From positions 1-64,000 of the forward strand of contig NZ_JAMHGA010000037.1 in assembly GCF_023660105.1 (NCBI RefSeq): a stretch of DNA of 64,000 nucleotides, given 5' to 3'. Made by a program: the position numbers and the translations under genes. The notes beneath the pieces are model-generated. The model had not been told where the DNA came from. It worked only from the letters and a program-made list of their open reading frames with translations, and did no database searches. Every line of letters starts with the position of its first letter. The first letter of the stretch is position 1. Positions 12,708 to 52,384 of this stretch are shown one piece after another. The stretch comes from Desulfovibrio aminophilus. GTDB lineage: Bacteria > Desulfobacterota > Desulfovibrionia > Desulfovibrionales > Desulfovibrionaceae.

Positions 12708-13970
12708 ATGCTGCACCCTGCTTCGTCATGGGACTGGCAGCCTGGTGAGCGAGTGGTGCTGGACTCCACCGCCTGTCCGGCGCCGCATGAATGGCAGGAG
12801 GAGCCCTACGTCTCGCCCGACGGCGAGAAACTCGGGGCGATCGTCCGCCTGGACGACGGCCTTTTCACCCTCTGCGTGAACGGAACTCCCTGGGAAGCCT
12901 CGTTCGACAAGATCTGGAGCCCCCGCTTCAGCCCGGACGGACGGCTGACCGCCATCGTGCAGCAGGATGGTGAATGGACCATGGCCGTGGAAGGCGAAAC
13001 CTGGCCCGAAAACTACGCCTACCTCTGGTCCACCATGTTTTCGGCCGACGGCTCCGTCATCGCCGCGGCCATCCAGCAGGACGGCGAATACGGCCTGTGC
13101 GTGGACGGCGCTCCCTGGGAGACCCTCTACGAGAACGCCAACCAGTTCACCCTGAGCCGTGACGGCCAGGCCACGGCCGCCGTGGTCCAGGTGCAGTCCA
13201 TGGCCGCCGCGGACCTCGCCGCCTTCCAGCGCGGCGTGTTCTCGGTGGCGGTCAACGGACAGGCCTGGGACCGCACCTTCGTCAACGTCTACACCCCGAC
13301 CTTCGATCCCTCGGGCAGCCGCGTGGCCGCCCAGGTCCGCCTCAACCTCTACGATTACAGCATCGTGGTGGACGGCGAGACCTGGAAGCAGACCTACGCC
13401 TGCGTCTGGGAACCCCGCTTCAACCCGACCTCCGGCGCGGTGGTCGCGCCGGTGCGCGTCGCCGGTTCCTGGGGCCTGGCCCAGGACGGCCAGATCATCT
13501 GGGAGCCGGTCTTCGCCCAGTGCTGGCAGCAGGCCTTCAGCCGCGACGGCAAGACCATCGCCGCCATCGTGGCCCCGGGCTACGGCAAGTTCACCGTGGC
13601 CGTGAACGCCAAGCCCTGGGCCGCCACCTTCCCGGTGGTGACCGACCTGGCCCTGGCGGCGGACGGCAAGCGCGCCGCGGCCCTGGGCAACGAATACAAC
13701 GCCAACTGGCAGGTGGTCGTGGACGGCCGCCCCTGGGACGGCGTCTTCGACATGGCCTGGAAGCCGGTCTTCAGCCCCGACGGCGCCCGCGTGGCCGCCA
13801 AGGTCGAGCGCGGGGGACGCCAGAACGTCCTGCTCGACGGCAAGCCCTACAAGCGGGACTTCGAACAGGTCTGGGAGCCGGTCTTCAGCCCCGACGGCTC
13901 CAAGGTGCTCATCCGCGCCCGCGACGGCGGCAAATACCTCCGAATCGTGGCTCAGGCCGCGGACTTCTAA
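12708..13970 (+). CDS. tmcD: TmcD, cytoplasmic beta-propeller-like subunit of the Tmc complex
   Basis: A 420-residue protein built of about eight ~45-residue repeats with the pattern W-x2-x-F-SPDG-x3-A-A-x-V, then VDG-x-PW. This is a TolB/PD40-type propeller signature. It has no signal peptide or membrane span, so it should sit on the cytoplasmic face. In Desulfovibrio the fourth gene of the tmc operon encodes such a Trp-rich protein of unclear role; here it comes first. TAAGGAGG ten bases before the ATG gives a confident start. It is followed by tmcC after 11 bases. Confidence 0.85.
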   Translation: MLHPASSWDWQPGERVVLDSTACPAPHEWQEEPYVSPDGEKLGAIVRLDDGLFTLCVNGTPWEASFDKIWSPRFSPDGRLTAIVQQDGEWTMAVEGETWPENYAYLWSTMFSADGSVIAAAIQQDGEYGLCVDGAPWETLYENANQFTLSRDGQATAAVVQVQSMAAADLAAFQRGVFSVAVNGQAWDRTFVNVYTPTFDPSGSRVAAQVRLNLYDYSIVVDGETWKQTYACVWEPRFNPTSGAVVAPVRVAGSWGLAQDGQIIWEPVFAQCWQQAFSRDGKTIAAIVAPGYGKFTVAVNAKPWAATFPVVTDLALAADGKRAAALGNEYNANWQVVVDGRPWDGVFDMAWKPVFSPDGARVAAKVERGGRQNVLLDGKPYKRDFEQVWEPVFSPDGSKVLIRARDGGKYLRIVAQAADF

Positions 13971-15999: not shown

Positions 16000-16380
16000 A
16001 TGAAGAAAGCCACCATTGCCGTCCTGCTGGCCCTCTGGGTGCTGGTCCCGGCTTTGCGGGTCGCCGCCCAGGACGATCTCAAGGAGATCAAGTCGGAGGC
16101 CTTCGGCACGCTCCAGCGTCCGGCCGTGCCCTTCGACCACAACGTCCACAACGAGAAGGCCCAGATCGAGGACTGCCTGGCCTGTCACCACAGCGGCGAG
16201 AACGGCCGCCAGGACAAGACCACCGGCAGCGAGGGCACTCCCTGCTCCGAGTGCCACAAGGTCAAGCCCGCGGGCAAGACGACCTCGCTCATGCGCGCCT
16301 ACCACAAGCAGTGCATCGGTTGTCACACGGAAAAGAAGAAGGGCCCCGTCGCCTGCGGCGAGTGCCACATCCGCAAGTAG
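16000..16380 (+). CDS. tmcA: TmcA, tetraheme acidic (type II) cytochrome c3
   Basis: 126 residues with a Sec signal peptide (1-~23, cleavage near RVAAQ-DD). Four CxxCH heme sites are present: C59-H63, C82-H86, C105-H109 and C119-H123. Four other histidines (H47, H50, H64, H102) provide the distal ligands, so all four hemes can be bis-His as in cytochrome c3. All sites are CX2CH. It accepts electrons from periplasmic type I cytochrome c3/hydrogenase and passes them to TmcCB. It is last in the operon, followed by a strong terminator. Confidence 0.92.
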   Translation: MKKATIAVLLALWVLVPALRVAAQDDLKEIKSEAFGTLQRPAVPFDHNVHNEKAQIEDCLACHHSGENGRQDKTTGSEGTPCSECHKVKPAGKTTSLMRAYHKQCIGCHTEKKKGPVACGECHIRK

Positions 16381-16389
16381 TCTCCAACA

Positions 16390-16423
16390 CCGGGGGGCGG
16401 GGCCGTCCCGCCCCCCGGCTTTT
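16390..16423 (+). terminator. Rho-independent terminator of tmc operon
   Basis: A perfect 12-base stem (16390-16401 with 16407-16418) closes a 5-base loop and is followed by CTTTT. It sits ten bases after the tmcA stop. Confidence 0.9.
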
Positions 16424-16461
16424 CCCAGGACCCGCCACCCAGCGACAGGAGGCGACCAGCC

Positions 16462-16962
16462 ATGCACCTGTCCACGCGAAGCCGCTACGGCGTCCGCATC
16501 GTTCTGGACGTGGCCCTGCACCAGGCCGACGGCCCGGTGAAGGTTTCGGACATCGCCCTGCGCCAGAGCATCTCGCACAAGTATCTGGAGAAGATCATCA
16601 TCAGCCTGCGCCAGGCGAACATTCTCAGGAGCGTCCGGGGCTGCCGGGGAGGCATCCTCCTGGCCCGGCCCAAGGATGAGATCACGGCCGGAGAGCTGGT
16701 GCGCGTGCTGGAGGGCAAGAAGGCCCTCACGGACTGCGCCAACCCCGACACCCGCTGCGTGCCCTGCCAGCGCACCCAGGGCTGCCCGGCCCAGCGCCTC
16801 TGGTTCGAGGCCAGCCGCGCCCTGTTCGACACCCTGGACAACATCACCATGGCCGACGTCATCGCCTGGCAGGGCGAGATGCAAGAGGACTCGGCGGCCT
16901 TCTGCCGCCTGCCCCGCTGCCTGGATCAGGCGGGCGAACCGCGCGTCAGCCTTTCCTTCTGA
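16462..16962 (+). CDS. Rrf2/IscR-family transcriptional regulator
   Basis: 166 residues beginning MHLSTRSRYGVRIVLDVAL, with the winged-helix pattern and the Rrf2 wing RGCRGGILLARP. Cysteines in DCANPDTRCVPCQRTQGCP (near 93-111) resemble, but do not match exactly, the three-Cys Fe-S or redox site of IscR/NsrR; further cysteines lie at the C-terminus. It follows the tmc terminator with its own GGAGG, so it is expressed separately or by read-through. Position suggests it may control the redox genes nearby; targets are not known. Confidence 0.86.
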   Translation: MHLSTRSRYGVRIVLDVALHQADGPVKVSDIALRQSISHKYLEKIIISLRQANILRSVRGCRGGILLARPKDEITAGELVRVLEGKKALTDCANPDTRCVPCQRTQGCPAQRLWFEASRALFDTLDNITMADVIAWQGEMQEDSAAFCRLPRCLDQAGEPRVSLSF

Positions 16963-16979
16963 CTCCGCCCGGACGGACG

Positions 16980-17018
16980 AAAAACGCCGGCCTCCCATCC
17001 AGGGAGGCCGGCGTTTTT
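16980..17018. terminator. Bidirectional terminator between the Rrf2 gene and asnS
   Basis: A perfect 17-base stem (16980-16996 with 17002-17018) and 5-base loop, with A5 on the left and T5 on the right, serves the convergent genes on both strands. Confidence 0.92.
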
Positions 17019-17038
17019 CGTTGGCGCTGGGTTTCGGC

Positions 17039-18424
17039 CTAGAATTCCAGGTGACCCGGGGTGCGCGGGAAGGCGATCACGTCGCGGATGTTGGTGATGC
17101 CCGTGACGAGCATGAGCAGGCGCTCGAAGCCCAGGCCGAAGCCCGCGTGCGGGGCCGAGCCGAACCGCCGGATGTCGAGGTACCAGCTGTACTGCTCCGG
17201 GGTCATGCCCGTCTCCGTGATCCGGCGTTCCAGCACGTCCAGCCGCTCCTCGCGCTGGCTGCCGCCCACCAGCTCGCCGATGCGCGGCACGAGCAGGTCC
17301 ATGGCTCCCACGGTGCGGTCGTCGTCGTTGAGCCGCATGTAGAAGGCCTTGATCTCCTTGGGGTAGTCGTAGACGATGACCGGCCGTTTGAAATGCTCCT
17401 CGCAGAGGTAGCGCTCATGCTCGGTCTGGAGGTCCACGCCGTAGCCCACGGGGAACTCGAAGGCCTTGCCGGACTTGGCGAGGATATCCACGGCCTCGGC
17501 GTAGGGCAGGCGCACGAAGGGGTCCTTGAGGATGCCCTCCAGGGTCGGCCGCAGCTCCTTGTCCACGAAGTTGGCGAACAGGTCCAGATCGGCGGCGCAG
17601 CGCTCCACGGCCCAGCCCACCGTGGCCTTCACCATGTCCTCGGCCAGGTTCATGTCGTCGGTGAGGTCCGCGAAGGCCATCTCCGGCTCGATCATCCAGA
17701 ACTCGGCGCAGTGCTTGGGCGTGTTGGAATTCTCGGCCCGAAAGGTGGGGCCGAAGGTGTACACGTCGCCCAGGGCCAGGGCCAGGAGTTCGCCCTCCAA
17801 CTGACCGGAGACCGTGAGATGGGCCGGACGGCCGAAGAAGTCGGCCGCACCCAACTCGGCCGCGCTCTTGCCGCCCCACTGGGCCGGGTCCAGGCTGGTC
17901 ACGCGGAACATCTCGCCCGCGCCCTCGCAGTCCGAGCCGGTGAGGATGGGCGTATGCACGTAGAAGAAGCCCCGGTCGCGGAAGAACTGGTGCACCGCGA
18001 AGGACATCTCGGAGCGGATGCGCAGCATGGCCCCGTACTTGTTCGTGCGCGGCCGCAGGTGGGCGATGGTGCGCAGGAATTCGTCGGAGTGGCGCTTCTT
18101 CTGCAGCGGAAAGGTCTCCTGGTCGGCCGCGCCCAGGAGCTCCACGCTCCGGGCCTTGAGCTCCCACTTCTGCCCCTTGCCGGGCGAGGGCACGAGGTCG
18201 CCGCCCAGGGCCACGGCCGCGCCCGTGCCGATGCCCTCCAGGGCCCGCACGATCTCCGGGGTGTGGTCGATGACGGCCTGCAGATTCTTCAGGCAGGAGC
18301 CGTCGTTGACCTCCAGGAAGGAAAAGCCCTTGGAGTCGCGCTTGGTGCGCACCCAGCCCTTGACCACGATGTCCGTCAGGGGCGCCTCGGCGTTCAGCGC
18401 CGCGTTGATCTTGATCCGTTGCAT
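17039..18424 (-). CDS. asnS: Asparaginyl-tRNA synthetase
   Basis: 461 residues. An N-terminal OB-fold anticodon-binding domain (~15-110) is followed by a class II core: motif 1 near SFAVHQFFRDRGFFYVHTP, motif 2 around FRAENSNTPKHCAEFWMIEPE and motif 3 GFGLGFERLLMLVTG. The sequence TGSDCEGAGEMF is the AsnRS type rather than AspRS. It charges tRNA-Asn directly. The ATG at 18424 has GGATCGCC upstream. It lies 15 bases after the MBL gene and shares its strand. Confidence 0.95.
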   Translation of the reverse strand: MQRIKINAALNAEAPLTDIVVKGWVRTKRDSKGFSFLEVNDGSCLKNLQAVIDHTPEIVRALEGIGTGAAVALGGDLVPSPGKGQKWELKARSVELLGAADQETFPLQKKRHSDEFLRTIAHLRPRTNKYGAMLRIRSEMSFAVHQFFRDRGFFYVHTPILTGSDCEGAGEMFRVTSLDPAQWGGKSAAELGAADFFGRPAHLTVSGQLEGELLALALGDVYTFGPTFRAENSNTPKHCAEFWMIEPEMAFADLTDDMNLAEDMVKATVGWAVERCAADLDLFANFVDKELRPTLEGILKDPFVRLPYAEAVDILAKSGKAFEFPVGYGVDLQTEHERYLCEEHFKRPVIVYDYPKEIKAFYMRLNDDDRTVGAMDLLVPRIGELVGGSQREERLDVLERRITETGMTPEQYSWYLDIRRFGSAPHAGFGLGFERLLMLVTGITNIRDVIAFPRTPGHLEF

Positions 18425-18439
18425 GTGGCGATCCTTTGC

Positions 18440-19180
18440 TTATGAGGGATTTCCAGCCGGCTCCAGGTCCAGCTCCAGAACCTGGCCCGGCTTGTCGTAC
18501 AGGAACACGTCCGATCCTCCGGCAGCCAGCAGCGGCCGGACGTCCTTGAGCCAGGCCGTGCGGCCGAAGGCGTGCATGGGCACCAGCACCGTGGGCCGCA
18601 CCGTGTTCGCGAACTCGGGGCCTCCGGCGAGATTGGCCAGCCGCCGGTCCACGTTGGTGAAGGCGATGTCCACGGGCCGCCGGGCGATACGCTCCACCGC
18701 CTTGGTGAAGAACTCCGCGGTGAAGGCCTGCTCGGCCTCGGAGGCCGTCTCCCAGACCCAGGCCGCCAAGTCGCCGCCGAAGTAGATCCGCGCCCCGCCC
18801 ACCTCCACGAGATAGGCCACGCCCAGGTCGTTGGACATGAGCGTCTCGATGACCAGCCCCGAAAAGGAATACGTCTCGTCCGGCTCCACCACCAGCGCGC
18901 CCGGGGGCACGGCCGCCGGATACATCTCGGCCACGTCGTCGGAGATCACGAAGTCGGCCGAGGCCGCCCCGGCGCAGGCCGCGGCCAGGTCCCGGCGGAA
19001 ATGGTCGTCGTGGCTGTGGGAGGCGAAGGCCGTCACCTTGCGGCCCTCCAGCGCCAGCGACAGAGCCTCCGAGGCCCGGCGCTTGAGGTATTTGCTCTCC
19101 GGGCAATCGAAAAGGAGGGTCCGGCCGCCGATGTCCAGAAGAAAACAATTATGGAAGATGTACGTGAGCCTGACGCGCAT
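18440..19180 (-). CDS. Metallo-beta-lactamase-fold hydrolase
   Basis: About 246 residues. The metal-binding motif SHSHDDHF (near residue 62) and a later GGD (~142) fit the UlaG/UPF0173-like branch of the metallo-beta-lactamase fold. The N-terminal LTYIFHNCFLLDIGGRTLLF strands are typical. It would be a cytoplasmic, Zn- or Mn-dependent hydrolase; the substrate is unknown. Start uncertain: ATG at 19180 or 19195; neither has a clear ribosome site. It is divergent from ftsY and close to asnS on the same strand. Confidence 0.75.
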   Translation of the reverse strand: MRVRLTYIFHNCFLLDIGGRTLLFDCPESKYLKRRASEALSLALEGRKVTAFASHSHDDHFRRDLAAACAGAASADFVISDDVAEMYPAAVPPGALVVEPDETYSFSGLVIETLMSNDLGVAYLVEVGGARIYFGGDLAAWVWETASEAEQAFTAEFFTKAVERIARRPVDIAFTNVDRRLANLAGGPEFANTVRPTVLVPMHAFGRTAWLKDVRPLLAAGGSDVFLYDKPGQVLELDLEPAGNPS

Positions 19181-19278
19181 GCCCGGATGAATCATATCCC
19201 CGGGCAAAAGGCAAGGCGGCGGGTTGCCGGGCAGGTCGGCTTGGGCTACAACCGGGCCCTGAACGCTGCTTTCCGAGG

Positions 19279-20619
19279 ATGCCCATGGGATTCTTCTCCA
19301 AGCTGAAGACGCTCTGGGGCGGCGCGGCCCCCGCCGAAACCGCCCCCGCTCCCGAAACCGCCCAGGCGGCCCCCGCCCCGGCCCCGCAGGAGCGCCCCGC
19401 TCCCACCCCGGCCGCGCCGGAAGGCGAATGGCGGGACGCCCTGACCTTGGCCCTGCGCCAGTCCGAGCCCCGGCTCTCCGTCTGGCTCGGCCACGTGCTC
19501 TCCGGCGTCGCCGAGGCCGGGCCGCTCCTGCGCGAACGCCTGCTCTTCCTGTTCCAGGCCCTGGACGCCCCCGATGCCGAGGCCGAGTCCTTCGTGGCCG
19601 ACTTCGAGTCCTGGCTCGCGGCCATGGGCTATCGCGGGGTGGACGAATTCCGCTCCGAACTGCAGTACCGGCTGGCCCTGGCCCTGGACCTGGAGGACGA
19701 GGAGGACGAGCGCGACAGGCTCTTCCTCAAGCTCTCCGAGGGCCTGGCCAAGACCCGCGAGCAGATCACCAAGCGCATCGACACCCTGCTGGCCGGAAAC
19801 CGGGCCATCGACGAATCCTTCTGGGAGGAGTTCGAGGAAATCCTGATCATGGCCGACGTGGGCTTCGAGGCCGCCTCCAAGCTCATGGAGAGCCTGCGCG
19901 CCCGGGTGCGCAAGGCCGGAATCCGCGAGGCCGAGGGCTTCCGCGACCTGCTCAAGGAGGAGCTGGCCGACATCTTCAAGACGCCCAAGCGCATCCAGGC
20001 CGTGAACCCGCCCGAGGTGGTCATGATGGTCGGGGTCAACGGCGTGGGCAAGACCACGACCATCGCCAAGCTGGCCCACCGCGCGCGCATGCAGGGCCGC
20101 AAGGTGCTCATCGCCGCCGGCGACACCTTCCGGGCCGCGGCCATCGAGCAGCTGGAGATCTGGGCCACGCGGGTTGGCGCGGGCTTCTTCGCCAAGCAGG
20201 CCGGGGCCGATCCGGCGGCCGTGGCCTTCGAGGCCATGGACAAGGCCGTGGCCGAGGGCTACGACCTGCTCCTCCTGGACACGGCCGGACGCCTGCACAC
20301 CAAGGCCAACCTCATGGAAGAGCTGAAAAAAATCAAACGGGTGCTGGACAAGAAACACCCCGGCGCGCCGCACCGCAGCATCCTGGTCATCGACGCCACC
20401 ACGGGCCAGAACGCCCTGTCCCAGACCAAGCTCTTCCACGAGGCCGTGGGCGTGGACGAAATCGTGCTGACCAAGCTGGACGGCACGGCCAAGGGCGGAG
20501 TCGTGGTGGCCGTGACCCTGCAGTTCCGCATTCCCATCACCTTCGTGGGCCTGGGCGAAAAGATGGAGGACCTGCGGCCGTTCAACGGCGAGGACTTCGC
20601 CAAGGCCCTGCTCTGCTGA
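19279..20619 (+). CDS. ftsY: Signal recognition particle receptor FtsY
   Basis: 446 residues with an acidic, Ala/Pro-rich A region (~10-50), the helical N domain, and the SRP GTPase G domain: P-loop GVNGVGKTTTIAKLA, DTAGRLHTKANLMEEL and TKLDGTAKGG, ending in GLGEKMEDLRPFNGEDF, a standard FtsY C-terminus. It docks SRP-ribosome complexes at the inner membrane. The ATG at 19279 lies downstream of TCCGAGG. It is followed by a methyltransferase after 17 bases. Confidence 0.96.
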   Translation: MPMGFFSKLKTLWGGAAPAETAPAPETAQAAPAPAPQERPAPTPAAPEGEWRDALTLALRQSEPRLSVWLGHVLSGVAEAGPLLRERLLFLFQALDAPDAEAESFVADFESWLAAMGYRGVDEFRSELQYRLALALDLEDEEDERDRLFLKLSEGLAKTREQITKRIDTLLAGNRAIDESFWEEFEEILIMADVGFEAASKLMESLRARVRKAGIREAEGFRDLLKEELADIFKTPKRIQAVNPPEVVMMVGVNGVGKTTTIAKLAHRARMQGRKVLIAAGDTFRAAAIEQLEIWATRVGAGFFAKQAGADPAAVAFEAMDKAVAEGYDLLLLDTAGRLHTKANLMEELKKIKRVLDKKHPGAPHRSILVIDATTGQNALSQTKLFHEAVGVDEIVLTKLDGTAKGGVVVAVTLQFRIPITFVGLGEKMEDLRPFNGEDFAKALLC

Positions 20620-20636
20620 GGAGCGAGGAGCGCATC

Positions 20637-21371
20637 ATGCCCGCGGTCGAGGAACACTACTCCCGGCATCTGGCCGCCTTCTACGACTGGCTTTGCGGCG
20701 GCTTCGAGGCGGCCGTGGAGCGCAACCGGGGCCTGCTGCGCCGGTTCGTCCCGCCCGCCGGACCCGGGGCCTCGGCCCTGGACCTGGGCGCGGGCTCGGG
20801 CCACCAGTCCATCCCCCTGGCCGAGTCCGGCTACGCCGTGACCGCCGTGGACTCCTGCGCGGAGCTGCTGGCCGTGCTGGAGGAGAAAATGGGAGACCTG
20901 CCCATCCAGGCCGTGCGCGCGGACATCCTGGCGCACCTGGAGCGGGAGGCCGGGACCTTCGACCTGATCCTCTGCATGGGCGACACGCTCACGCACCTGC
21001 CGGACCAGGACGCCGCACACGCCCTGCTGGCCCGGTCCGCGCGCCTGCTCAAGCCCGGCGGCGTCCTGCTCCTGTCCTTCCGGGACTACGCCTCGTCCAC
21101 GCCGGAAGGCCTCTCGCGCTTCATTCCGGTGCGCGCCGACGACACCCGCGTGGCCACCTGCTTCCTGGAGTACGGGACGACCCACGTGCAGGTGCACGAC
21201 CTCCTGCACACCCGCCAAGAAGACGGCCAGTGGGCCTTTTCCGCCGGCGTCTATCCCAAGTGCCGCCTCGCGCCGGAGGCCGTGCGCGCCGCCCTGACCG
21301 GGCTCGGACTCCGGGACATCGGGATGGAGAGCGAGCGCGGCATGGTCTTCCTGCGCGCCGAAAAGGCCTAG
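20637..21371 (+). CDS. Class I SAM-dependent methyltransferase
   Basis: 244 residues. The SAM site is clear: motif I LDLGAGSGHQSIPLAESGY, an acidic end of strand 2 (TAVDS), then DLILCMGDTLTHL and LLKPGGVLLLSFRDY. This resembles small-molecule or glycine-type methyltransferases, but the acceptor is unknown. GAGGAG six bases before the ATG at 20637 sets the start; an in-frame extension upstream overlaps ftsY and is rejected. It probably belongs to the ftsY transcript. Confidence 0.85.
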   Translation: MPAVEEHYSRHLAAFYDWLCGGFEAAVERNRGLLRRFVPPAGPGASALDLGAGSGHQSIPLAESGYAVTAVDSCAELLAVLEEKMGDLPIQAVRADILAHLEREAGTFDLILCMGDTLTHLPDQDAAHALLARSARLLKPGGVLLLSFRDYASSTPEGLSRFIPVRADDTRVATCFLEYGTTHVQVHDLLHTRQEDGQWAFSAGVYPKCRLAPEAVRAALTGLGLRDIGMESERGMVFLRAEKA

Positions 21372-21384
21372 GCGGCAAAACGCC

Positions 21385-21906
21385 GTGGCCCGCAATATCG
21401 AGATCAAGGCCCGCGTCGCGGACATCGCCTCGGTCGAACCCCTGGCGGCCGCCCTGGCGGACCAGGGCCCGTTCGAGATCGACCAGGACGACACCTTCTT
21501 CGCCTGCCCCAACGGTCGGCTCAAGCTGCGCGTGCTGGCGGAAAACGACGGACAGCTCATCTTCTACCGCCGGGCCGACAGCGCCGGGCCCAAGGAATCC
21601 TTCTACGTCATCAGCGCCACCAGCGAACCGGACACGCTGCGCGAAACCCTGGCCCTGGCCTATGGGCCGGCGGGCCGGGTGCGCAAGCGCCGCACCCTGT
21701 ACCTGGCCGGGCGCACCCGCATCCACCTGGACCGGGTGGAGGGGTTGGGGGAGTTCCTGGAGCTGGAGGTGGTCCTGGCCGAGGGCGAGGCCCTGGAGAC
21801 GGGACTGGCCGAAGCCCACGGCCTCATGGCCCGGCTCGGCGTGGAGCCCGGGCAGCTGCTGGAAGGGGCCTACGTGGACCTGCTGGCGGGGGAAAAGAAC
21901 GGCTAG
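21385..21906 (+). CDS. CYTH-domain protein (class IV adenylate cyclase/thiamine-triphosphatase-like)
   Basis: 173 residues beginning MARNIEIKARV, the E-x-E-x-K-like signature of the CYTH fold. Internal KLRV, IFYRR, HLDRVEGLGEFLELEVV and a C-terminal LLEGAY fit the triphosphate-tunnel family (CyaB-like). Such enzymes act on ATP, thiamine triphosphate or polyphosphate with Mg2+. GTG start at 21385, 13 bases after the methyltransferase stop, so cotranscription with ftsY is likely. The AT-rich island begins 11 bases after its stop. Confidence 0.82.
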   Translation: MARNIEIKARVADIASVEPLAAALADQGPFEIDQDDTFFACPNGRLKLRVLAENDGQLIFYRRADSAGPKESFYVISATSEPDTLRETLALAYGPAGRVRKRRTLYLAGRTRIHLDRVEGLGEFLELEVVLAEGEALETGLAEAHGLMARLGVEPGQLLEGAYVDLLAGEKNG

Positions 21907-21917
21907 GCCGTTGATAT

Positions 21918-21926
21918 AACGCCACA
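21918..21926 (+). repeat. Left copy of 9-bp direct repeat flanking AT-rich island
   Basis: AACGCCACA, identical to 23391-23399. It lies 11 bases after the stop of the CYTH gene, where the G+C-rich sequence ends. Confidence 0.55.
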
Positions 21927-22000
21927 ACCAACAAGAAAAAAACGATCCCGGCCAGTCCTTAAGACTTTAATATTCACCATCTTGACTGGGCTCCATCATA

Positions 22001-23254
22001 ATGAAATCAGAAGAAGATAGATTATATCGCTTTCAAAAAGCCTGTGATTGTATTCAATCGCATCCTAGAAACAAAAATTTTGTGAGTCTAATTGAACCGA
22101 ACCGTGATATTTTTCGCGAATTTCGATTAATCTATTCCACCGATGATGACGAGTACAGATTAGGGAATATTAAGCTTAGTGAAATATACACTAAGTGCTC
22201 ATCACTGATAAAATTTTATTATGGAAATGGTCTTTTATTTTTTAGTGATCAAATTTACGATAGTATTATTAATAATAAAAATGCAGAAATATGTATTGAT
22301 TACTCTTTTATTTTTGATTCTAATGTTGCAATACAATTAAAAAATTTTATGTTCGGAAATATTCCTAGCCCAATAAATAGGTTTTTTGAACTAATAAATT
22401 ATATAAAATTGCACAAGATAAACTGTGATATAATTTTTTTTATTCTTGAATACATGCAATATGCAATGAACCCCAAAAAGCCATTAATATACGACACGAT
22501 ATTTGCGTTCAAACAATTTGATCAACTAAAATGCACCGAAATTACTTCTGACTTCAAACAATTGTTAATTAGAATTGACAAAAATATCGCCGCACAAAAT
22601 GCAAATTTAGCACTAAATATATTTAACAGAGACCATAACATACAACTATTATTGCACTATCATTCGATTTCATACATGCTATTGCTGAAAACAATAATTA
22701 TACAAAAAAACTCACCAGCAAACCATATTAACAAATTATCTGAGTTAATTAATTATTGCATAACCAAGACAGGAAGATTCTTAAAAACAGAGATGTATTT
22801 TGCATGGAAAATATTCAAATTTTGGAAAAAACATAAATATCTCCAGCAAATTGTAAATATAAACTCCGATCAAAAAGCAACCAATCGGATCAAAATGATC
22901 CGAAGAACTAGCTGGGATCTATTCTCTATCAGATTTCAAGAAATATACTCAACAACAAATGGCATTGGACACTTCTTCATCCCATTCTTTGTTTCATTTG
23001 AAAATAAATTAATAAACTTCTCAAAAAAATGCCCTGTAAAATGCCTTATTGTTGACGATAAGACAGGAATGGCAAATACGATATTCGAAGATGACAATGA
23101 GTTCAATGATGATATCACTAAAATAGATAAAAATATTCTACAGCAATTGACAAACAAAAAAAATATTAGAGCTAGACTAAAAAACAACTGCCACAACAAC
23201 GATATTGAGAATAATATCATGACGCTAGAAAGCGAATTTAATAAACTCTTTTAA
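22001..23254 (+). CDS. AT-rich orphan gene, hypothetical protein (possibly PIN-like)
   Basis: I do not recognise this 417-residue protein. It is rich in Ile, Asn, Lys and Phe, encoded mostly with A/T-ending codons, unlike every neighbour, which points to recent transfer. It has no signal peptide; hydrophobic stretches are short and helical rather than clear membrane spans. Two acidic patches, D100/D106 (IDYSFIFDSN) and D306/E314 (WDLFSIRFQEI) followed by FFVSFENKL, loosely recall the spacing of PIN-like nucleases. This is a weak inference. The start ATG has no good ribosome site. Confidence 0.8.
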   Translation: MKSEEDRLYRFQKACDCIQSHPRNKNFVSLIEPNRDIFREFRLIYSTDDDEYRLGNIKLSEIYTKCSSLIKFYYGNGLLFFSDQIYDSIINNKNAEICIDYSFIFDSNVAIQLKNFMFGNIPSPINRFFELINYIKLHKINCDIIFFILEYMQYAMNPKKPLIYDTIFAFKQFDQLKCTEITSDFKQLLIRIDKNIAAQNANLALNIFNRDHNIQLLLHYHSISYMLLLKTIIIQKNSPANHINKLSELINYCITKTGRFLKTEMYFAWKIFKFWKKHKYLQQIVNINSDQKATNRIKMIRRTSWDLFSIRFQEIYSTTNGIGHFFIPFFVSFENKLINFSKKCPVKCLIVDDKTGMANTIFEDDNEFNDDITKIDKNILQQLTNKKNIRARLKNNCHNNDIENNIMTLESEFNKLF

Positions 23255-23386
23255 TCTGATTACACAAAAACAAAAAAATGATGCACGAAAAGCCACTTGT
23301 AAATTTTTAAAACTTAACTCGGTAGAATACCTAGTCAAATTTGCCAATCACCGTCTGCGAACGGATTCGATTAATCAATCGTTACG

Positions 23387-23443
23387 TCAAAACGCCACAG
23401 CCAGCAGCAGGGCCGTGATCCATCCCCTCATTCCCCGTCCCAT
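23387..23443 (-). pseudogene. N-terminal remnant of a membrane/secreted protein gene, cut at the island border
   Basis: Thirteen bases after the DUF2157 stop, a perfect ribosome site GGAGG and ATG begin MGRGMRGWITALLLAVAF, then a stop where the AT-rich sequence starts. This looks like the start of a signal or membrane helix that has lost the rest of its protein. In many proteobacteria a DUF2157 gene is followed by a GDYXXLXY-domain gene with this sort of N-terminus; I infer that was the lost gene. Confidence 0.55.
23391..23399 (+). repeat. Right copy of 9-bp direct repeat flanking AT-rich island
   Basis: AACGCCACA, identical to 21918-21926, lying inside the truncated reading frame where host-like sequence resumes. 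Confidence 0.55.
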
Positions 23444-23453
23444 GACGCCTCCC

Positions 23454-24503
23454 TCAGTCCCCGGAACCGCGCCGGTACTGCGGCAAGCCGCGACGGAGCC
23501 GGTCCGGCAGCATCGCCAGCACCGCCCGTTCCAGGGCCGCGCCGTGGCGGCGGTACTGGACCCCGGCGGCGATGGCGAGCAGGCCGATGAGACTCAGGAC
23601 GAAGGGGAAGGCCAGGGAATCCTTGAACACGTCCCAGGCCAGGTGCCCGAGGTACCCGGCCACGCCCAGGGAGCCGAAGACCAGGAACACCCGCCGCTGC
23701 ACGAGGATGGAGACGAGGAGCAGGCCCACGTTGACGCCGCAGTACGCGAGCTTGCCGAGTTCACTGTGGCTCTCCATGACGCTCAGTCCGCCCCAGAAGG
23801 CCATCAAGCCGAAAAGATAGCCCCAGAAGGCGAAATCCTCCCGCGTCCGGCGGTCCACCACGTAGGTCGCGGCCAGGACGACCAGGCCGAAGCAGACCGA
23901 GACGAGCTTGCGCTCGTCCCAGGAGAAGTCCTCCCGACCCAGCAGGAGCGGGGTCAGGTCCATGGACATGTACCAGAGCGCGAAGGCCACGGGGAAGGTG
24001 AGAAAGGGGAAACGGAAGAAGCGCAGGGCCAGAAGCCCGGCCAGCACGGTTCCGGCTTCCATGAGCAGCCAGCCGCCGCGCACCAGGACGTGGTATTTGG
24101 CGAACGCGCCCGGAACATCCTGGGGCCAGATGCCGGTGAGCACTTCCAGGCCGTAGATCGCCAGCGGCGTCATCCACACGGCCAGGGTGACGAGCAGCCC
24201 GCCTGGCGCCCGGTACCCGGCCTTGGTCCAGAGCCACCAGCCCACGGAGGCGAAGGCCCCGGCGTAGGCCAGGGCGATGAGCAGCAGGCCGAGCCCGCCG
24301 AACCGCTCCCAGCTCTCGTTCATGAACCAGCCCATGGCGCCCATGACGAGCAGGGCCCCGAAATAGTAGAGCAGGTGCTGGAGGTCGAACTGGGGCCGCT
24401 GGGCGTTCCGCTGGAGCAGAAACTCCCACAGGCCCTCGGCCCGCGAGGCGTCGAGAACGCCCTGGTCCACGGCCAGATCCAGGTCCTTGCGCGTCAGCCG
24501 CAT
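23454..24503 (-). CDS. DUF2157-domain integral membrane protein
   Basis: 349 residues. A short soluble N-terminus (MRLTRKDLDLAVDQGVLDAS, to ~45) with the DUF2157 LLYYFGALLV entry is followed by about ten hydrophobic helices. Function of the family is unknown. AAGGAG six bases before the ATG at 24503 defines the start. The partner gene that normally follows appears to be truncated at 23387-23443. It is preceded by the RluA gene on the same strand, 69 bases away. Confidence 0.78.
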   Translation of the reverse strand: MRLTRKDLDLAVDQGVLDASRAEGLWEFLLQRNAQRPQFDLQHLLYYFGALLVMGAMGWFMNESWERFGGLGLLLIALAYAGAFASVGWWLWTKAGYRAPGGLLVTLAVWMTPLAIYGLEVLTGIWPQDVPGAFAKYHVLVRGGWLLMEAGTVLAGLLALRFFRFPFLTFPVAFALWYMSMDLTPLLLGREDFSWDERKLVSVCFGLVVLAATYVVDRRTREDFAFWGYLFGLMAFWGGLSVMESHSELGKLAYCGVNVGLLLVSILVQRRVFLVFGSLGVAGYLGHLAWDVFKDSLAFPFVLSLIGLLAIAAGVQYRRHGAALERAVLAMLPDRLRRGLPQYRRGSGD

Positions 24504-24572
24504 GCCCGCTCCTTCAGTTCGTTTCAGCGTCATTTGGACGGAGGATGATGAACACGGTTCCCGGGAACCAGC

Positions 24573-25421
24573 TCACGGCGCGCCCTCCCCGCCGCCTCCG
24601 GCGCGGGGAAAACCATCGGCCACGGCGGCCTCGAAGCCCTCGAACGACAGCCGCCCGTGGTGCAGGAAGAGCCGTTCCCCCTCCCCGTCGCCATAGAGCG
24701 GATCGCCCACGATGGGCAGGAGCACGTGCGCCAAGTGGGCCCGGATCTGATGCCGCGCGCCCTTGCGGATGACCACCTTGAGCAGGGTCCGGTCATGATC
24801 CTCGTCGTACTCCAGGGGCTCGGCCCGGGTCCAGCGCAGGGGGCTCTCGTCCTCATGCGCCAGCACCTTCGTCTTCTTCCGGTCGTCCGTGTCCAGGGCG
24901 TTCATCACGGTCACGGGCCATTCCAGGCAGCCGCGCACCAGGGCCTGATACTCCTTGGTCACCCCGCCCGCGTCCTCCAGCTCATGGTAGCGCGCGGCGG
25001 CCTCGGGCGTGAGCCCGGCCAGGACGATGCCGGAGGTGAGGAAGTCCAGGCGGTTCAGAAGCCGGGCCCCGCGCCCGGGCAGCAGCCCGGGCAGCAGCCG
25101 TTCGACGCTCGGGTTGTCGCGGCCCGCGATGGCCGCGCTGTGCATGCCGCCGGGCTTGAACAGCGCGGCGTAATCGCCCTGGATGGACAGGAGCCGCGCG
25201 GCGGCAGCCGGGGACGGCTCCTCCGGCTCCCGCGCCGCCAGGGCCAGGCGCTGCCCGGCGTTCACGCGGAAGCCCTTGGCCCGGGCCCGGCCGTCCACCA
25301 GCACGGCCCCGGTTTCCCAGGCCCGCCGCCGCTCCCGCAGGGAGCTGCCGGGCAGGAGGAGTTCCAGGGCCTGGTCCAGCCGCGCGCCGTCCATGTCCTC
25401 GGGGACCGTCACCTCGTTCAT
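24573..25421 (-). CDS. RluA-family RNA pseudouridine synthase
   Basis: About 282 residues. An S4-like N-terminal region (ARLDQALELLLPG, ~10-60) is followed by the catalytic fold, with the key LLNRLDFLTSGIVL segment carrying the catalytic Asp of the RLD motif, and IRKGARHQIRAHLAH near the C-terminus. It isomerises uridine in rRNA or tRNA; the site cannot be told from sequence. The ATG at 25421 is preceded by GGGAAGTGG. The C-terminus is Gly-rich. It is divergent from the ornithine cyclodeaminase-like gene. Confidence 0.85.
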   Translation of the reverse strand: MNEVTVPEDMDGARLDQALELLLPGSSLRERRRAWETGAVLVDGRARAKGFRVNAGQRLALAAREPEEPSPAAAARLLSIQGDYAALFKPGGMHSAAIAGRDNPSVERLLPGLLPGRGARLLNRLDFLTSGIVLAGLTPEAAARYHELEDAGGVTKEYQALVRGCLEWPVTVMNALDTDDRKKTKVLAHEDESPLRWTRAEPLEYDEDHDRTLLKVVIRKGARHQIRAHLAHVLLPIVGDPLYGDGEGERLFLHHGRLSFEGFEAAVADGFPRAGGGGEGAP

Positions 25422-25556
25422 CCACTTCCCATACGGCCGAAGCGGACACACGGCAAGCGAGTGCTCAGGCTTTGACGCCCGGGACGAAAGGCCCTACACA
25501 GAACCATTCGGCCGAATCCCGCGGCCGCATCCCGCAGCAAACCAAAGGAGCGTTCC

Positions 25557-26546
25557 ATGTCCTTCGACGTGCTCTGGCTCTCCCGCGCCGACCTGGATTC
25601 CCTTGGCCTCGGAATGCCCGCCATCATGGACGCCGTGGAGCAAGGCTTCGCCTGCCTCGGCCGGAACGAGGCCGAGATGCCCGCCAAGATCGGCATACAT
25701 CCCCGCCACGACTGCTTCATCCACGCCATGCCCTGCTGGATCGGCGGGGCCGTGGACCGCTGCGGCATCAAGTGCGTGTCCGGCTACCCGCCGAACCAGA
25801 AAAAGGGCCTGCCCTACATCACCGGGGTCATGGTGCTCATCGACCCGGAGACCGGCCTGACCCAGGCGGTCATGGACGCGGGCTGGGTCACGGCCTGGCG
25901 CACGGGCGCGGCCTCGGGCGTGTACGCCAAGCATTTCGGCGACCCGGATTCCGAGGTCGTCTCGGTCATCGGCCTGGGCGTGCAGGGCCGGGTCAACCTC
26001 CTGGCCTTCAAGGAGGTCTTCCCCAGGATCAAGCAGGTGCGCTGCTTCGACCCCGTGGCCGGACAGCCCGAGCGCTTCCTGAAGGACATGGGCCCGGCGC
26101 TGCCCAAGGCCGAGTTCGTGGTCTGCGGGGACGTGAAGTCCTGCGTGGCCGACGCCGACGTGGTCGTGACCTGCACGCCCATCGTGGAAAAGCCCGAACG
26201 CTTCCTGCCCCGCGCCTGGCTCAAGGAGAAGGTCCTGGCCGTATCCGTGGACTACGACTCGGCCTTCGCCGAGGACGTCATGGCCGCCACGCCCTGCTTC
26301 GTCTGCGACAACGCCAACCAGTACCTCTGGACCCGCGACCAGGGCGTCTATTTCCAGAACGGCTACCCGGACAAGGGCCGGGTCTACGCGGACATGGGCC
26401 AGATCTGCGCCGGGAAGAAGCCGGGCGTGCGCGACGGGCTGCGCGCGGCCGTGCTCATGGGCATCGCCAGCCACGACGTGATGACCGCCTCCCTGGCCTT
26501 CGACCTGGCCAGGGCCAAGGGGCTGGGCAGCGTGGTCCAGCTCTGA
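25557..26546 (+). CDS. Ornithine cyclodeaminase/mu-crystallin family protein
   Basis: 329 residues. The family pattern is visible: MPAKIGIHP near 41, GIKCVSGYPPNQKKGLPYITG, AWRTGAASG, and the NAD(P)-binding VIGLGVQGRVNL. Members include ornithine cyclodeaminase, alanine dehydrogenase, and enzymes making or breaking N-substituted amino acids. The substrate is not readable. AAAGGAG precedes the ATG. Its TGA overlaps the ATG of the EamA transporter (TGATG), suggesting that transporter handles the substrate or product. Confidence 0.85.
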   Translation: MSFDVLWLSRADLDSLGLGMPAIMDAVEQGFACLGRNEAEMPAKIGIHPRHDCFIHAMPCWIGGAVDRCGIKCVSGYPPNQKKGLPYITGVMVLIDPETGLTQAVMDAGWVTAWRTGAASGVYAKHFGDPDSEVVSVIGLGVQGRVNLLAFKEVFPRIKQVRCFDPVAGQPERFLKDMGPALPKAEFVVCGDVKSCVADADVVVTCTPIVEKPERFLPRAWLKEKVLAVSVDYDSAFAEDVMAATPCFVCDNANQYLWTRDQGVYFQNGYPDKGRVYADMGQICAGKKPGVRDGLRAAVLMGIASHDVMTASLAFDLARAKGLGSVVQL

Positions 26547-27418
26547 TGGCGGGCTATCTCCTGGTCCTCTGCGCGGCCGTGCTCTGGGCGCTCATCGGGC
26601 CGTTGTCCAAGTTCATCTTCGCCGAGGGCGTCACGCCGCTGGAGGTGGCCTTCTGGCGCTCCACCATCGGCTGGTGCCTGTTCGCGGCCCAGGCCCTGGC
26701 CCTGCGGTCGGGACAGCGGGCGCGGTCCAAGGACCTGCCCGCCCTGGCGGCCTTCGGCCTGGTCGGGGTGGCGCTCTTCTACGGCTCCTACCAGGTGGCC
26801 ATCGAGCACGTGGGCGCGGCCCTGGGCGGGGTGCTCCTCTACACCGCCCCGGCCTGGGTGGCCCTGCTCTCCCGGCTGATCTTGGGCGAACCCGCGACCC
26901 CGGCCAAGCTCTTCGCCGTGGCCGCCACGATCCTCGGCGTGGCCCTGGTGAGCCTCTCCGGCGGCGGCACGGTGACGCCCTCGGCCCTCGGTGTCCTGGC
27001 CGGGCTCACGGCCGGGTTCACCTACGCCCTTTACTACATCTTCGGAAAGAAGTTCCTCACCCGCTACGACACGGCCACCCTCTTCCTCTACGCCCTGCCC
27101 GTGGGTTCGCTCTGCCTCCTGCCCTTCGTGCACTTCACGCCCAAGTCCGCCTCGGCCTGGGCCCTGCTCGTGCTCCTCTCGGCCACCACCACCTGGGGCG
27201 GCTACTCGGTCTACTACGCGGGCCTCAAGCGCCTGGAGGCCACCCGGGCCGCAGTGGTGGCCACCCTGGAGCCGGTGATCACCGCCGGACTGGCCTGGTG
27301 GTGGTGGAACGAACGCTTCGGCGCGACCGGATACCTGGGCAGCGCCCTGGTCCTCTCGGCCGTGCTGCTCATGATCGCCGAGGGCGCGCGGCGGCGTCCG
27401 GGAGGGAGCCCGGCGTGA
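26546..27418 (+). CDS. EamA/DMT-family transporter
   Basis: 290 residues with ten hydrophobic helices arranged as two EamA repeats (WALIGPLSKFIFAEG in the first and YALYYIFGKKFLTRYD in the second), typical of drug/metabolite or amino-acid exporters. The second half contains the conserved ATRAAVVATLEPVITAGLAW segment. It overlaps the upstream ornithine cyclodeaminase-like gene by one base and the downstream helicase gene by GTGA. Likely substrate: an amino acid or derivative handled by that enzyme (inferred). Confidence 0.88.
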   Translation: MAGYLLVLCAAVLWALIGPLSKFIFAEGVTPLEVAFWRSTIGWCLFAAQALALRSGQRARSKDLPALAAFGLVGVALFYGSYQVAIEHVGAALGGVLLYTAPAWVALLSRLILGEPATPAKLFAVAATILGVALVSLSGGGTVTPSALGVLAGLTAGFTYALYYIFGKKFLTRYDTATLFLYALPVGSLCLLPFVHFTPKSASAWALLVLLSATTTWGGYSVYYAGLKRLEATRAAVVATLEPVITAGLAWWWWNERFGATGYLGSALVLSAVLLMIAEGARRRPGGSPA

Positions 27419-30400
27419 GCGGCTCGAGCATCCGCCAGGTCAAGGCCGCCGCTGGCTCGGGCAAGACCTTCGCGCTCACGGCCCGCTTCCTGGAACTCCT
27501 GGGCTCGGCCCAACGCGACGACCCGGGCCTGACCTGCCGGGGACTGCGGCCGGAGACCTACTCCTGGCCCGAGATCCTGGCCGTGACCTTCACCAACAAG
27601 GCCGCCGCCGAAATGAAGGAGCGCGTGCTCAAGGCCCTCAAGCGCTGCGCCCTGGACATCCGCGACGACGGCCAGCGGGCCGACTGGGACCATGCGCGGG
27701 CCGCCGGAGTGGTGGAGACCATCCTGCGCCGCTACCACCGCCTGAACATCCGCACCATCGACAGCCTGCTCGTGCTCCTGCTGCGCCTCTTCGCGCTGGA
27801 ATACGGCATCCGGCCGGACTTCGAGGTGGCCTTCGAGGAGAACGACGTCTTCGACTTGGCCTATGAGCGCTTCGTGGGCCGCTGCGAAGACCCCTCGGGA
27901 ACGGAGCGGGCCCTGCTGCTCACGGCCCTGGACACCTTCCTGCGCCACGAGAACCGCTCCGGCTTCCGGCCCGAGCGGGGCATCCGCGAACGGCTGCGGG
28001 AACTGGCCACCCTGCTCCAGGCCGAGGACGGGCCGCTGCTCACGGACCAGGACGAGCTGGCCGACCTGCTCACCGCCTGCCGGGAACGCTTTCTGGAGGC
28101 CGTGACGCTCATGCGCGGCTTCCTGGACGAATACGCCCTGGCCCCGGACAAGCGCTTCCTGGCCTTTCTCCAGAAGTGCCGGGCGGTCCAGGGCTTCGAC
28201 GAGCCGCCCAAGTCGGCCTACGCCGGAAAACCGCTCCTGGAGGACTGCCTGACCAAGGCGGGCAAGGCCCGGGTCACGGACCAGTGCGAGGCGGCCTACG
28301 ACCTGCTCAAGACCGCCGCGGCCGCCTACCGCCGGGAATGGGCGGCGGTGAGCGGGGCCTACGCCTTGGCCCCGGCCCTGACCATCGCCGGGCTGCTGGT
28401 GGAGGACATGCGGGCCGAGTCGCGGCTGCGCGGGGTGGTGCCCATCGCGGCCCTGACCCGGGCCGTGCGCGACCTCCTGGGCCAGGCCGAGGCCGTTCCC
28501 GAGGCTTACTGCCGACTGGGCTCGCGGCTCTTCCACCTGCTGGTGGACGAGTTCCAGGACACGAGCCGGGCCCAGTGGTCGGCCGTGTCGCCCCTGGCCG
28601 AGGAGTGCCTGTCCAAGGGCGGCAGCCTGTTCTGCGTGGGCGACGTGAAGCAGGCCATCTACGGCTGGCGCGGCGGCGACGCCTCGCTCTTCGACGAGGT
28701 GCCCCGCCGTCCCGGGCTGGCCGACCTGGCCGAGAGCGTCACGGCCGAGACCCTGCCGCGCAACTGGCGCAGCGCTCCGGCCGTGGTGGACTTCAACAAC
28801 GCCTTTTTCAGCCGTTTGGCCGAGCCGGACACCGCCGGAGAACTGGCCGGGGAAATCCTGGGCGAGGCCCCGGAGGAGGAGCGCGGCGCTCTCGCCGGGG
28901 AGCTGGCCCGGGTCTTCGCCGACGCGCGCCAGGACATGCCTGGGGAATACGACGGCCCCGAGGGCTTCGTGCGCCTGGCCCGCCTGCCCGGCGGCACGCG
29001 CGAGGAGTTCGAGGCCCGCACCCTGGAGGCGCTGCGCGGCCTGATCCAGGATCTCGCCGCGCGGCGGCCCTACCGGGACATCGCCGTGCTCGTGCGCGAC
29101 AACCGGCAGGCGGGCCTGGTCTGCGAACAGCTCGTGGCCCTGGAGATCCCGGTGGTCACGGAGAGCAGCCTGCTCCTGGCCCGGCACCCCGTGGTGCGCC
29201 AGCTGGCCGCGTTCCTGGAATTTCTCGACTTCCCGGCCGACGATCTGGCCTTCCTGGCCCTGGTCTCCGGGCCGGTGTTCCAGCGGGCCGCCGGGCTCGA
29301 TCCCCTCCGGGTGGCCGAATGGCTCGTGGACCGGGAGCGCGGCGGCCTGGGCCGCCGTTTCCGCCAGGACTTCCCGGAGGTATGGGAACGCGCGCTCAAG
29401 CCCTTCTTCGACAAGGCCGGGCTGCTCACGCCCTACGACCTGGCCCAGGCGGCCGTGGAGCGCTTCGGCGTGGCCGCCGCCGAGCCCGGGGCCGAGCTGT
29501 ACGTGCGCCGTTTCCTGGAGGTGGTCCACCTGGCCGAGGAGCGCGGCTGCCGTTCGCTCTCGGCCTTCCTGGACTTCTGGCGCGGCCAGGGCGCGGAGGA
29601 GAAGGTGCCCCTGCCCGAAAATCTGGACGCGGTCCAGGTGCTCACCGTGCACAAGTCCAAGGGACTGGAGTTCCCCGTGGCCGTCGTGCCGTTCCACGAC
29701 TGGTCCCTGCGACCCCAGGACGGGCTGCTGACCATCGAGCTGCACGGCGAACGCCTGCTCACCCCGGCCCGCGAGGCCCTGGGGCCGGAATACCGCGAGC
29801 GGGCGGGCCGCGAGGCGCGCGAGCAGCTCCATCTGCTCTACGTGGCCTGGACCCGGGCCCGAGAAGAACTGTACGGATTCTTCCCGGACGCGCGCGAGGA
29901 CAAGCGCCGTCCCCCGGCCCTGGCGGCCATGACCCGGCTCCTGGACATCCCGGAGGGAGAGACCGTGTTCGAACGCGGCCGCCCCGCCGAGGGCGGACCC
30001 CAGGATCGCGCCCGGCCCGAACCGCCGGAACCGCCCGCCCCGGCCGAGCCCGGCGAGGAGCTCACCGCCTGGCTGCCCCGGCTGCGGGTCTTCCGCCACT
30101 CCCTGGAAGACGTCTTCCTGGACCAGCGCCGCCGGGGCGAGATGGCCCACCGCGCCCTGGAACTGCTCCGGCCCACGGGCGACGACGCGGCCGACGCCCG
30201 CCGCGCGGCCCGGCTGGCCGTGCTGGATTTCCCCTTCGTGGGCGGCGGGGCCGACCTGGAGGACGAGCTGGCCGACCTGCTCCTCTGGGTCCTCTCCCGG
30301 CCGGAACTGAAGGACTGCCTGGGCCGGGGACTGGCCGAGGCCGAGGCCCTGGACGAAGAGGGCCGGACCCTGCGCTGCGACCGGCTCGTGCTGAGCGGGG

Positions 30401-52307: not shown

Positions 52308-52384
52308 CGGGATGTGGCTCAGCCTGGTAGAGCGCTGCGTTCGGGACGCAGAGACCGCGCGTTCAAATCGCGCCATCCCGACCA
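52308..52384 (+). tRNA. tRNA-Pro(CGG)
   Basis: A full cloverleaf: acceptor CGGGATG/CATCCCG, D arm with GGT, anticodon stem CTGCG/CGCAG around loop TTCGGGA (anticodon CGG), T arm with TTCAAAT, and encoded CCA end. It lies in the 270-base gap between cheB and the FadR-type gene and is transcribed away from cheB. Confidence 0.95.

What the first reader, a model, noticed from the sequence alone, without database searches (positions are those of the whole stretch)
21918..23399. AT-rich island inserted between the CYTH and DUF2157 genes, bounded by a 9-bp direct repeat
Composition drops sharply to AT-rich exactly between two high-G+C neighbours, with a single gene inside. AACGCCACA occurs at 21918-21926 and 23391-23399, close to the two composition borders. 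The right copy lies within a truncated gene. There is no integrase or transposase, so the mechanism of entry is not obvious. A chance 9-base match within these short borders is possible but unlikely (a rough count gives a few percent).
Basis: partly seen in the sequence, partly recalled or inferred. Interest (0 to 1): 0.72.

Follow-up and report, generated by a model that had tools for sequence, protein, structure and literature searches.

The report
AT-rich single-gene island at turnover site
A GC-rich bacterium carries one foreign AT-rich gene, probably a phage-defence or toxin-like gene of an unnamed family, at a chromosomal spot where related species carry nothing or a different foreign gene; the short repeat at its edges does not explain how it got there.

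Summary
In detail: window 21912-23451 is 31% G+C inside about 70% G+C DNA and holds one intact 417-codon gene. AACGCCACA occurs at 21918 and 23391, and the match extends imperfectly to 14 of 16 bases. Sister species G001 (91% identity) lacks exactly this stretch, 11 bp against 1,540 bp, so it is a real presence/absence island. The repeat is not its boundary: species-specific DNA runs 52 bp past the right copy, the sister's empty site keeps no copy, and three comparable islands lack such repeats. The 'truncated gene' is only an 18-codon frame. A third species, G002, has an unrelated AT-rich gene at the same ftsY-rluA spot. A 0.85-Mb sample of the genome holds two more 1.3-kb islands, both missing from the sisters; one left a footprint in G002, the other's site holds another AT-rich gene in G001. 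The gene belongs to a rare, scattered, unnamed family found on plasmids, phages, one integron cassette, and beside AbiEii, TIR, GmrSD and zeta-toxin genes. Its conserved acidic residues follow a PIN-nuclease order, but fold and profile searches were inconclusive. Best reading: integrase-less cargo at a gain-and-loss site, probably a defence or toxin effector. The site type is known; the family appears new.

The parts
21912..23451 (.). species-specific stretch (1,540 bp) absent from sister species G001
   Evidence: blastn of window 16001-30000 against G001 locus L013: matches end at window 21911 and resume at 23452, with 11 bp between them in G001
22001..23254 (+). single gene, 417 aa, rare unnamed family; invariant D106, E150, W305, D306, R311, E314; D/E at 334
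21918..21933 (+). left copy of imperfect direct repeat, AACGCCACAACCAACA
23391..23406 (+). right copy of imperfect direct repeat, AACGCCACAGCCAGCA
23310..23342 (.). AT-rich inverted repeat 56-88 bp after the stop codon, possibly the gene's transcription end
   Evidence: minus-strand fold of 23300-23400 z -2.39, 3 of 200 shuffles as good; plus strand z -1.46; the terminator scan does not list it
23387..23443 (-).
   Evidence: the stretch is absent from G001
21385..21906 (+). left neighbour, CYTH-domain gene (host)
   Evidence: Pfam CYTH E 4.1e-20; 91% identical in G001
23454..24533 (-). right neighbour, DUF2157-like membrane protein gene (host)
   Evidence: Pfam DUF2157 E 1.5e-07, 31.6 bits, just under the cut-off of 32.4; 91% identical in G001
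19279..20619 (+). ftsY, left marker of the variable site
   Evidence: SRP54 GTPase E 8e-77; found near rluA in G001, G002 and three further genera
24573..25451 (-). rluA-type pseudouridine synthase, right marker of the variable site
   Evidence: Pfam PseudoU_synth_2 E 2.9e-18

Best explanation
The island is a small piece of foreign cargo: one AT-rich gene with its own short flanks, carrying no mobility gene and no recognisable element ends, lodged in an intergenic spot of a GC-rich genome where foreign genes come and go. Shown: foreign composition, presence/absence against the sister, unrelated AT-rich cargo at the same spot in a third species, and two more islands of the same kind elsewhere in this genome. 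Inferred: it entered on DNA that recombined through conserved flanking genes (or was joined by illegitimate recombination, for which the 9-bp match may be a microhomology), not through its own recombinase. The protein most likely acts as a toxin-like or abortive anti-phage effector, perhaps a metal-dependent nuclease built like a PIN domain with a large helical insertion. The function is inferred only from sporadic distribution, neighbours of relatives, and the order of conserved acidic residues.
For: Composition, GC3 and codon usage. Absent from G001 with tight flanks at about 91% identity. G002 lacks island, CYTH and DUF2157 at the locus and has a 272-aa gene at 36% G+C (locus 66%) between ftsY and rluA. 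Three further genera with ftsY near rluA carry other, different genes between them. Of 849,563 bp sampled in this genome, three segments of 1.3-1.6 kb with flanks at or above 0.68 G+C were found, this one included. Islands B and C are absent from G001 and G002 apart from a footprint; site B in G001 holds a different AT-rich gene; G002 keeps 26 of 29 bases of the end of island C. Family members are sporadic: 4 of 297 order genomes including its own, four plasmids and one phage by tblastn, 21 of 27 motif loci confirmed by HMM. Neighbours of relatives include AbiEii, TIR, GmrSD, Mrr-like and zeta-toxin genes. Conserved acidic residues and secondary-structure order.
Against: Only one sister holds both flanking genes, so gain in this lineage and loss in G001 cannot be told apart; site C shows that losses happen. 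The neighbours of this copy that I tested are housekeeping types, not defence genes. Neighbour hits in relatives were chosen by eye, 7 of 12 loci tested, without a control. PADLOC, Pfam and PHROGs do not know the protein. Foldseek found nothing at E <= 0.001 for either model. P0001 itself has E where the consensus is D at column 334, so its activity could be altered. 6 of 22 family genes are not more than 5 points poorer in G+C than their surroundings. Recombination through the flanks was not tested, since three genomes are too few. The repeat extension (p 0.001-0.024) is not fully comfortable as chance.
Confidence: 0.62

Rival explanations
1. A site-specific or transposed mini-element: the 16-bp imperfect repeat is an att core or target duplication, and a recombinase acting in trans moved the single gene.
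For: 9-bp exact, 14-of-16 imperfect repeat close to both composition borders (ungapped p 0.001-0.0055). Relatives occur beside recombinases and in phages, and one relative looks like an integron cassette.
Against: The G001 empty site has no copy of the repeat (the one copy in the 13-kb G001 locus lies 3.5 kb away on the other strand). The species-specific stretch continues 52 bp past the right copy. Islands B, C and D lack comparable repeats. The two copies differ in spacing to the CGTT before them. No inverted repeat of 10 or more bp at the island's ends; the one found lies in host DNA. No attC by the R''/R' test that finds one in L060.
Confidence: 0.15
2. An ancestral accessory gene lost in G001 by deletion, not a recent arrival; the site is a shrinking remnant.
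For: G002 keeps a footprint of island C, so deletions of such islands do occur in this genus. G001 also lacks the 52-bp GC-rich stretch right of the repeat.
Against: No homologue in 58 other relatives by single-protein search; a profile finds three in 296 other genomes of the order, in other genera. The closest homologues are 31-33% identical. No footprint at the G001 site: similarity score 13.0, reached by 22 of 300 shuffles. GC3 of 0.29 shows little amelioration.
Confidence: 0.2
3. A decayed or single-cassette integron insertion (its attC lost).
For: Relative L060 looks like a textbook cassette: R'' TGCTAAC over the stop codon, complementary 7 of 7 to G+TTAGCA at the cassette start, 115 bp from R'' to R'. 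L027 has a weaker match (1 mismatch).
Against: No R''/R' pair at the island's ends; the single 1-mismatch hit lies in host DNA. The 3' flank folds no better than chance on the plus strand (z -0.58 and -1.46), but this says little, since the L060 attC does not either (z -0.21 and 0.53).
Confidence: 0.07
4. Assembly chimera or contaminant sequence.
For: Extreme composition change; no reads available.
Against: The gene lies inside a 72,976-bp contig with host DNA on both sides. Two other, less extreme islands (0.37-0.38 G+C) sit in another contig, and one has a footprint in G002.
Confidence: 0.02

Closest known systems
[quoted passage not shown] 2017, PMC5635113; passages read)
   Same: Variable cargo between conserved genes, no mobility gene, unrelated contents in relatives.
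   Different: Cargo here is a 0.8-1.5 kb unit of one or two genes per site. Comparison is between three species, not strains, and recombination in the flanks was not measured.
Core defence hotspots of Pseudomonas aeruginosa (2023, PMC10250203; passages read)
   Same: Defined by constant flanking core genes, not by an element; the authors see potential for transfer by transduction and homologous recombination without scars.
   Different: Those regions are 1-224 kb (cDHS1) with named defence systems; here one gene of an unnamed family, defence role inferred.
PIN-domain nucleases (VapC-like toxins, Pfam PIN_3)
   Same: Order of acidic residues and of strands and helices (PIN order recalled); hhalign places D106 and E150 on the PIN catalytic D and E.
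   Different: About 420 aa with an N-terminal extension and a helical insertion of about 120 aa; score not significant; no fold match; P0001 has E at the last acidic column.
Integron gene cassettes
   Same: One relative (L060) looks like an attC cassette inserted alone between chromosomal genes.
   Different: The window island has no attC by the same test.

Membership tests
Horizontally acquired genomic island | Composition and codon usage unlike the host | tested here: met
   GC3 0.29 against 0.89-0.95; 2.35 bits per codon divergence
Horizontally acquired genomic island | Absent at the syntenic site of a close relative | tested here: met
   G001: 11 bp in place of 1,540 bp
Horizontally acquired genomic island | Gain in this lineage, not loss in the relative | tested here: inconclusive
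   Only one sister keeps both flanking genes
Hotspot of gene turnover without mobility genes | Unrelated cargo between the same core genes in relatives | tested here: met
   G002 and three other genera carry different genes between ftsY and rluA; only G002's and, mildly, L090's are AT-rich
Hotspot of gene turnover without mobility genes | Raised homologous recombination in flanking genes | not tested
   Needs many strains; three genomes held for the genus
Transposon or integrase element with target duplication | Empty site keeps one copy of the repeat | tested here: not met
   No AACGCCACA between CYTH and DUF2157 in G001; a later deletion in G001 cannot be excluded
Transposon or integrase element with target duplication | Encodes a recombinase, or has terminal inverted repeats | tested here: not met
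   One gene, no family hit; no inverted repeat of 10 or more bp at the ends
Integron gene cassette | attC with R'' complementary to the cassette's own R' | tested here: not met
   No hit at the island ends; L060 found by the same test; the attC rule is recalled
PIN-domain nuclease | Four conserved acidic residues in PIN order | tested here: inconclusive
   D106, E150, D306 invariant in 16 rows; column 334 is D in at least 90% of rows, E in P0001; order matches strands and helices of the models; PIN order itself is recalled
PIN-domain nuclease | PIN fold by structure or profile comparison | tested here: inconclusive
   Foldseek none at E <= 0.001; VIA Utp23 PIN Z 2.0, rmsd 4.4, 106 residues; hhalign P 0.08, score 15.3 against best of 40 shuffles 14.1, and 15.2 against 15.5 with a narrower core
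Known anti-phage defence family | Match to a PADLOC model | tested here: not met
   0 families for P0001 and none for 4 of 5 relatives tested; the fifth, L049, has weak Csn2 hits (best E 0.0017)

The most novel reading that the evidence does not exclude
The gene represents an undescribed family of solitary anti-phage effectors, a PIN-like nuclease with a large helical insertion, that travels as a one-gene unit through several vehicles (plasmids, phages, an integron cassette, and integrase-less chromosomal islands), and this genus keeps many such 0.8-1.5 kb cargo sites that are swapped between species without any element of their own.
Probability: 0.3. Interest if true: 0.62.

Novelty: new member of a known kind. 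Interest (0 to 1): 0.42.

Why it matters
If the reading is right, small islands with no element of their own are a steady route by which GC-rich bacteria sample AT-rich defence-like genes, and empty or refilled sites in sister species mark where to look. It also supplies an unnamed, testable effector family. The immediate benefit is a caution: a 9-bp repeat at the edges of a composition island looked like a target duplication, but the sister genome shows that it is not the boundary.

Tried and rejected
Target duplication or att core: rejected as the leading reading because the empty site lacks the 9-mer and islands B, C and D lack repeats. A shared left-end motif between this island and island C (ATAACG..CAC.ACCAAC): p 0.16, rejected. 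Integron cassette: no attC at this island; the fold test does not discriminate, as the L060 attC does not stand out in it. DUF2157 partner gene truncated by the island: looked at only by eye in one distant relative, G058, where I saw no such partner. RNA element: no credible Rfam match in 21300-23600; the two hits at E <= 0.5 are far below their gathering scores.

Fold: two AlphaFold2 models (mean pLDDT 85.4 and 85.5) gave no Foldseek match at E <= 0.001. None is trusted. PDB sequence searches found nothing useful. A first PIN profile made partly from wrongly oriented loci was discarded and redone.

Relatives: P0001 as single query found nothing in viral contigs, and the alignment query A4 nothing in genome or viral contigs. 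A hand-made degenerate motif worked: 25 genome and 2 viral loci, 21 of 27 confirmed by HMM; the six others (Flavobacteriales/Chryseobacterium) were dropped. Alignment A6 holds 15 of those 21 plus P0001; L045, L047, L048, L050, L052 and L062 were left out (cut, near-identical or fragment; L048 simply not taken). Of 22 family genes looked at, 16 are more than 5 points lower in G+C than their surroundings; 6 are not. A profile search in 395 phylum genomes found only the genome itself.

Papers: accession searches for five relatives found no paper. Searches on PIN-like/abortive infection, single-gene insertion, antiphage/integron cassettes and PIN/antiphage gave no description of the family in the listings seen.

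Full report
What was checked. The AT-rich block is real: 300-bp windows are 0.23-0.32 between about 22000 and 23400 and 0.62-0.78 elsewhere in 18000-28000, apart from the windows that straddle the borders. It holds one gene, 22001-23254 (+), 417 aa. The frame is far longer than chance (422 codons; maximum 127 in 200 shuffles), and its codon use is foreign (GC3 0.29 against 0.89-0.95). The 9-mer AACGCCACA is at both cited places and extends to an imperfect 16-mer, 14 of 16 identical. Across border choices the exact match has p 0.0085-0.03 and the ungapped score p 0.001-0.0055; a gapped score gives 0.024. The genome has 14 copies of the 9-mer, against 9 of the reversed control.

Empty site. The genus has three genomes here. 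G001, about 91% identical, has the same order AsnRS, MBL-fold, FtsY, methyltransferase-like, CYTH, DUF2157, RluA, but only 18 bp lie between the stop codons of CYTH and DUF2157. The aligned parts stop at window 21911 and resume at 23452. So 1,540 bp are specific to G000, including 52 bp of GC-rich DNA right of the second repeat copy. G001 has no AACGCCACA at the site. A target duplication would have left one, unless G001 lost it later. The 'truncated gene' is an 18-codon frame that G001 lacks. Gain in G000 and loss in G001 cannot be separated, because G002 lacks CYTH and DUF2157.

A turnover site. G002 (82% identical) has, between ftsY and rluA, a different AT-rich gene (272 aa, 36% G+C in a 66% locus) with no Pfam or PADLOC match. 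Of 13 further rluA loci fetched from the order, three (L084, L090, L095) have ftsY within 2 kb, each with a different gene between; the other ten do not show ftsY in the stretch fetched, some because the contig ends. Of the three, only L090's insert is low in G+C (0.48).

More islands of the same kind. Of 17 segments holding 300-bp windows under 42%, three are 1.3-1.6 kb with flanks of at least 0.68 G+C: this island, B (C44, L135 5785-7042, one 328-aa gene without Pfam match) and C (C44, L137 14271-15572, HIT and HNH genes). Other low-G+C segments on C12 with poorer flanks were not examined. B and C are absent from G001 and G002 at conserved sites, with one exception: at site C, G002 keeps 26 of 29 bases of the island's 3' end (score 23, maximum 20 in 300 shuffles), a deletion footprint; G001 keeps none detectable (12.5, reached by 157 of 300 shuffles). 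At site B, G001 carries another AT-rich gene (757 bp between the aligned parts, 34% G+C), G002 131 bp of other sequence. So these units are gained and lost. B, C and G002's island D show no significant border repeats (7, 6 and 7 bp; p 0.23, 0.62, 0.25), which argues against one shared insertion mechanism marked by repeats. W, C and D lie between convergent frames; B lies between two minus-strand frames.

The protein family. Homologues at about 20-30% identity were found on Enterobacter, Pantoea and Legionella plasmids and one Streptococcus phage. A profile found three more in 296 other genomes of the order and none in the other 394 of a phylum sample. A degenerate DNA motif found 25 loci in species genomes and 2 in viral contigs; 21 of 27 were confirmed by HMM, in Streptococcus, Enterococcus, Anaerococcus, Rhizobium, Kushneria, Thiomicrorhabdus, a Tatlockia MAG and others. 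The closest (31-33% identical: L060, L055, L066, L024) are also low-G+C genes in richer surroundings (0.32-0.36 against 0.49-0.59 for three; L024/L027 0.40 against 0.46). Of 22 family genes looked at, 16 are more than 5 points below context and 6 are not. Neighbours that I tested include AbiEii (L026), a TIR protein (L027), GmrSD (L028, L044), an Mrr/ZorD-like protein (L051), zeta toxin and DprA (L029) and a recombinase (L048); with L053, L054, L055, L057 and L061 giving no defence or recombinase hit this is 7 of 12 loci, chosen by eye, without a control. L060 looks like an integron cassette by the complementarity of R'' over its stop codon to its own R'.

Function. In 16 aligned members D106, E150, W305, D306, R311 and E314 are invariant, and column 334 is D in at least 90% of them, with E in P0001. 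Two models (mean pLDDT 85.4 and 85.5) place these after a strand, in a following helix, in a late helix, and after a late strand, which is the order of a PIN domain as I recall it, with a helical insertion of about residues 160-290. hhalign of the core to 17 PIN_3 sequences puts D106 and E150 on the PIN D and E, but the score is not significant (15.3; best of 40 shuffles 14.1; a narrower core gave 15.2 against 15.5). Fold searches were inconclusive. PIN-like nuclease is therefore a lead, not membership.

Mechanism. [quoted passage not shown] transfer through conserved flanks was also suggested for P. aeruginosa defence hotspots (PMC10250203, passages). I did not measure recombination here. The first entry of such DNA into the lineage remains unexplained; a microhomology join using the 9-mer is possible. 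I rate the site as a new member of a known kind, and the family as apparently undescribed in the libraries and searches used.

Noticed in passing
L060:5538-6940 (Gammaproteobacteria bacterium Ga0077554): A relative of the island gene looks like a single integron cassette between chromosomal genes: R'' TGCTAAC over the stop codon, cassette start G/TTAGCA, 115 bp from R'' to R'.
   Followed up: partly
   Followed up: partly
L137:14271-15572 and L169 (site C): Island with HIT and HNH genes in G000; G002 keeps a 29-bp footprint of its end, a case of island loss.
   Followed up: yes
   Followed up: partly
   Followed up: no
window 45091-45174: ARAGORN calls a tRNA-Pro here, but the sequence is a GC-rich stretch unlike the tRNA-Pro at 52308; probably a false call.
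   Followed up: partly
window 12332-12709: The only other AT-richer segment of the window (44% G+C, about 380 bp).
   Followed up: no
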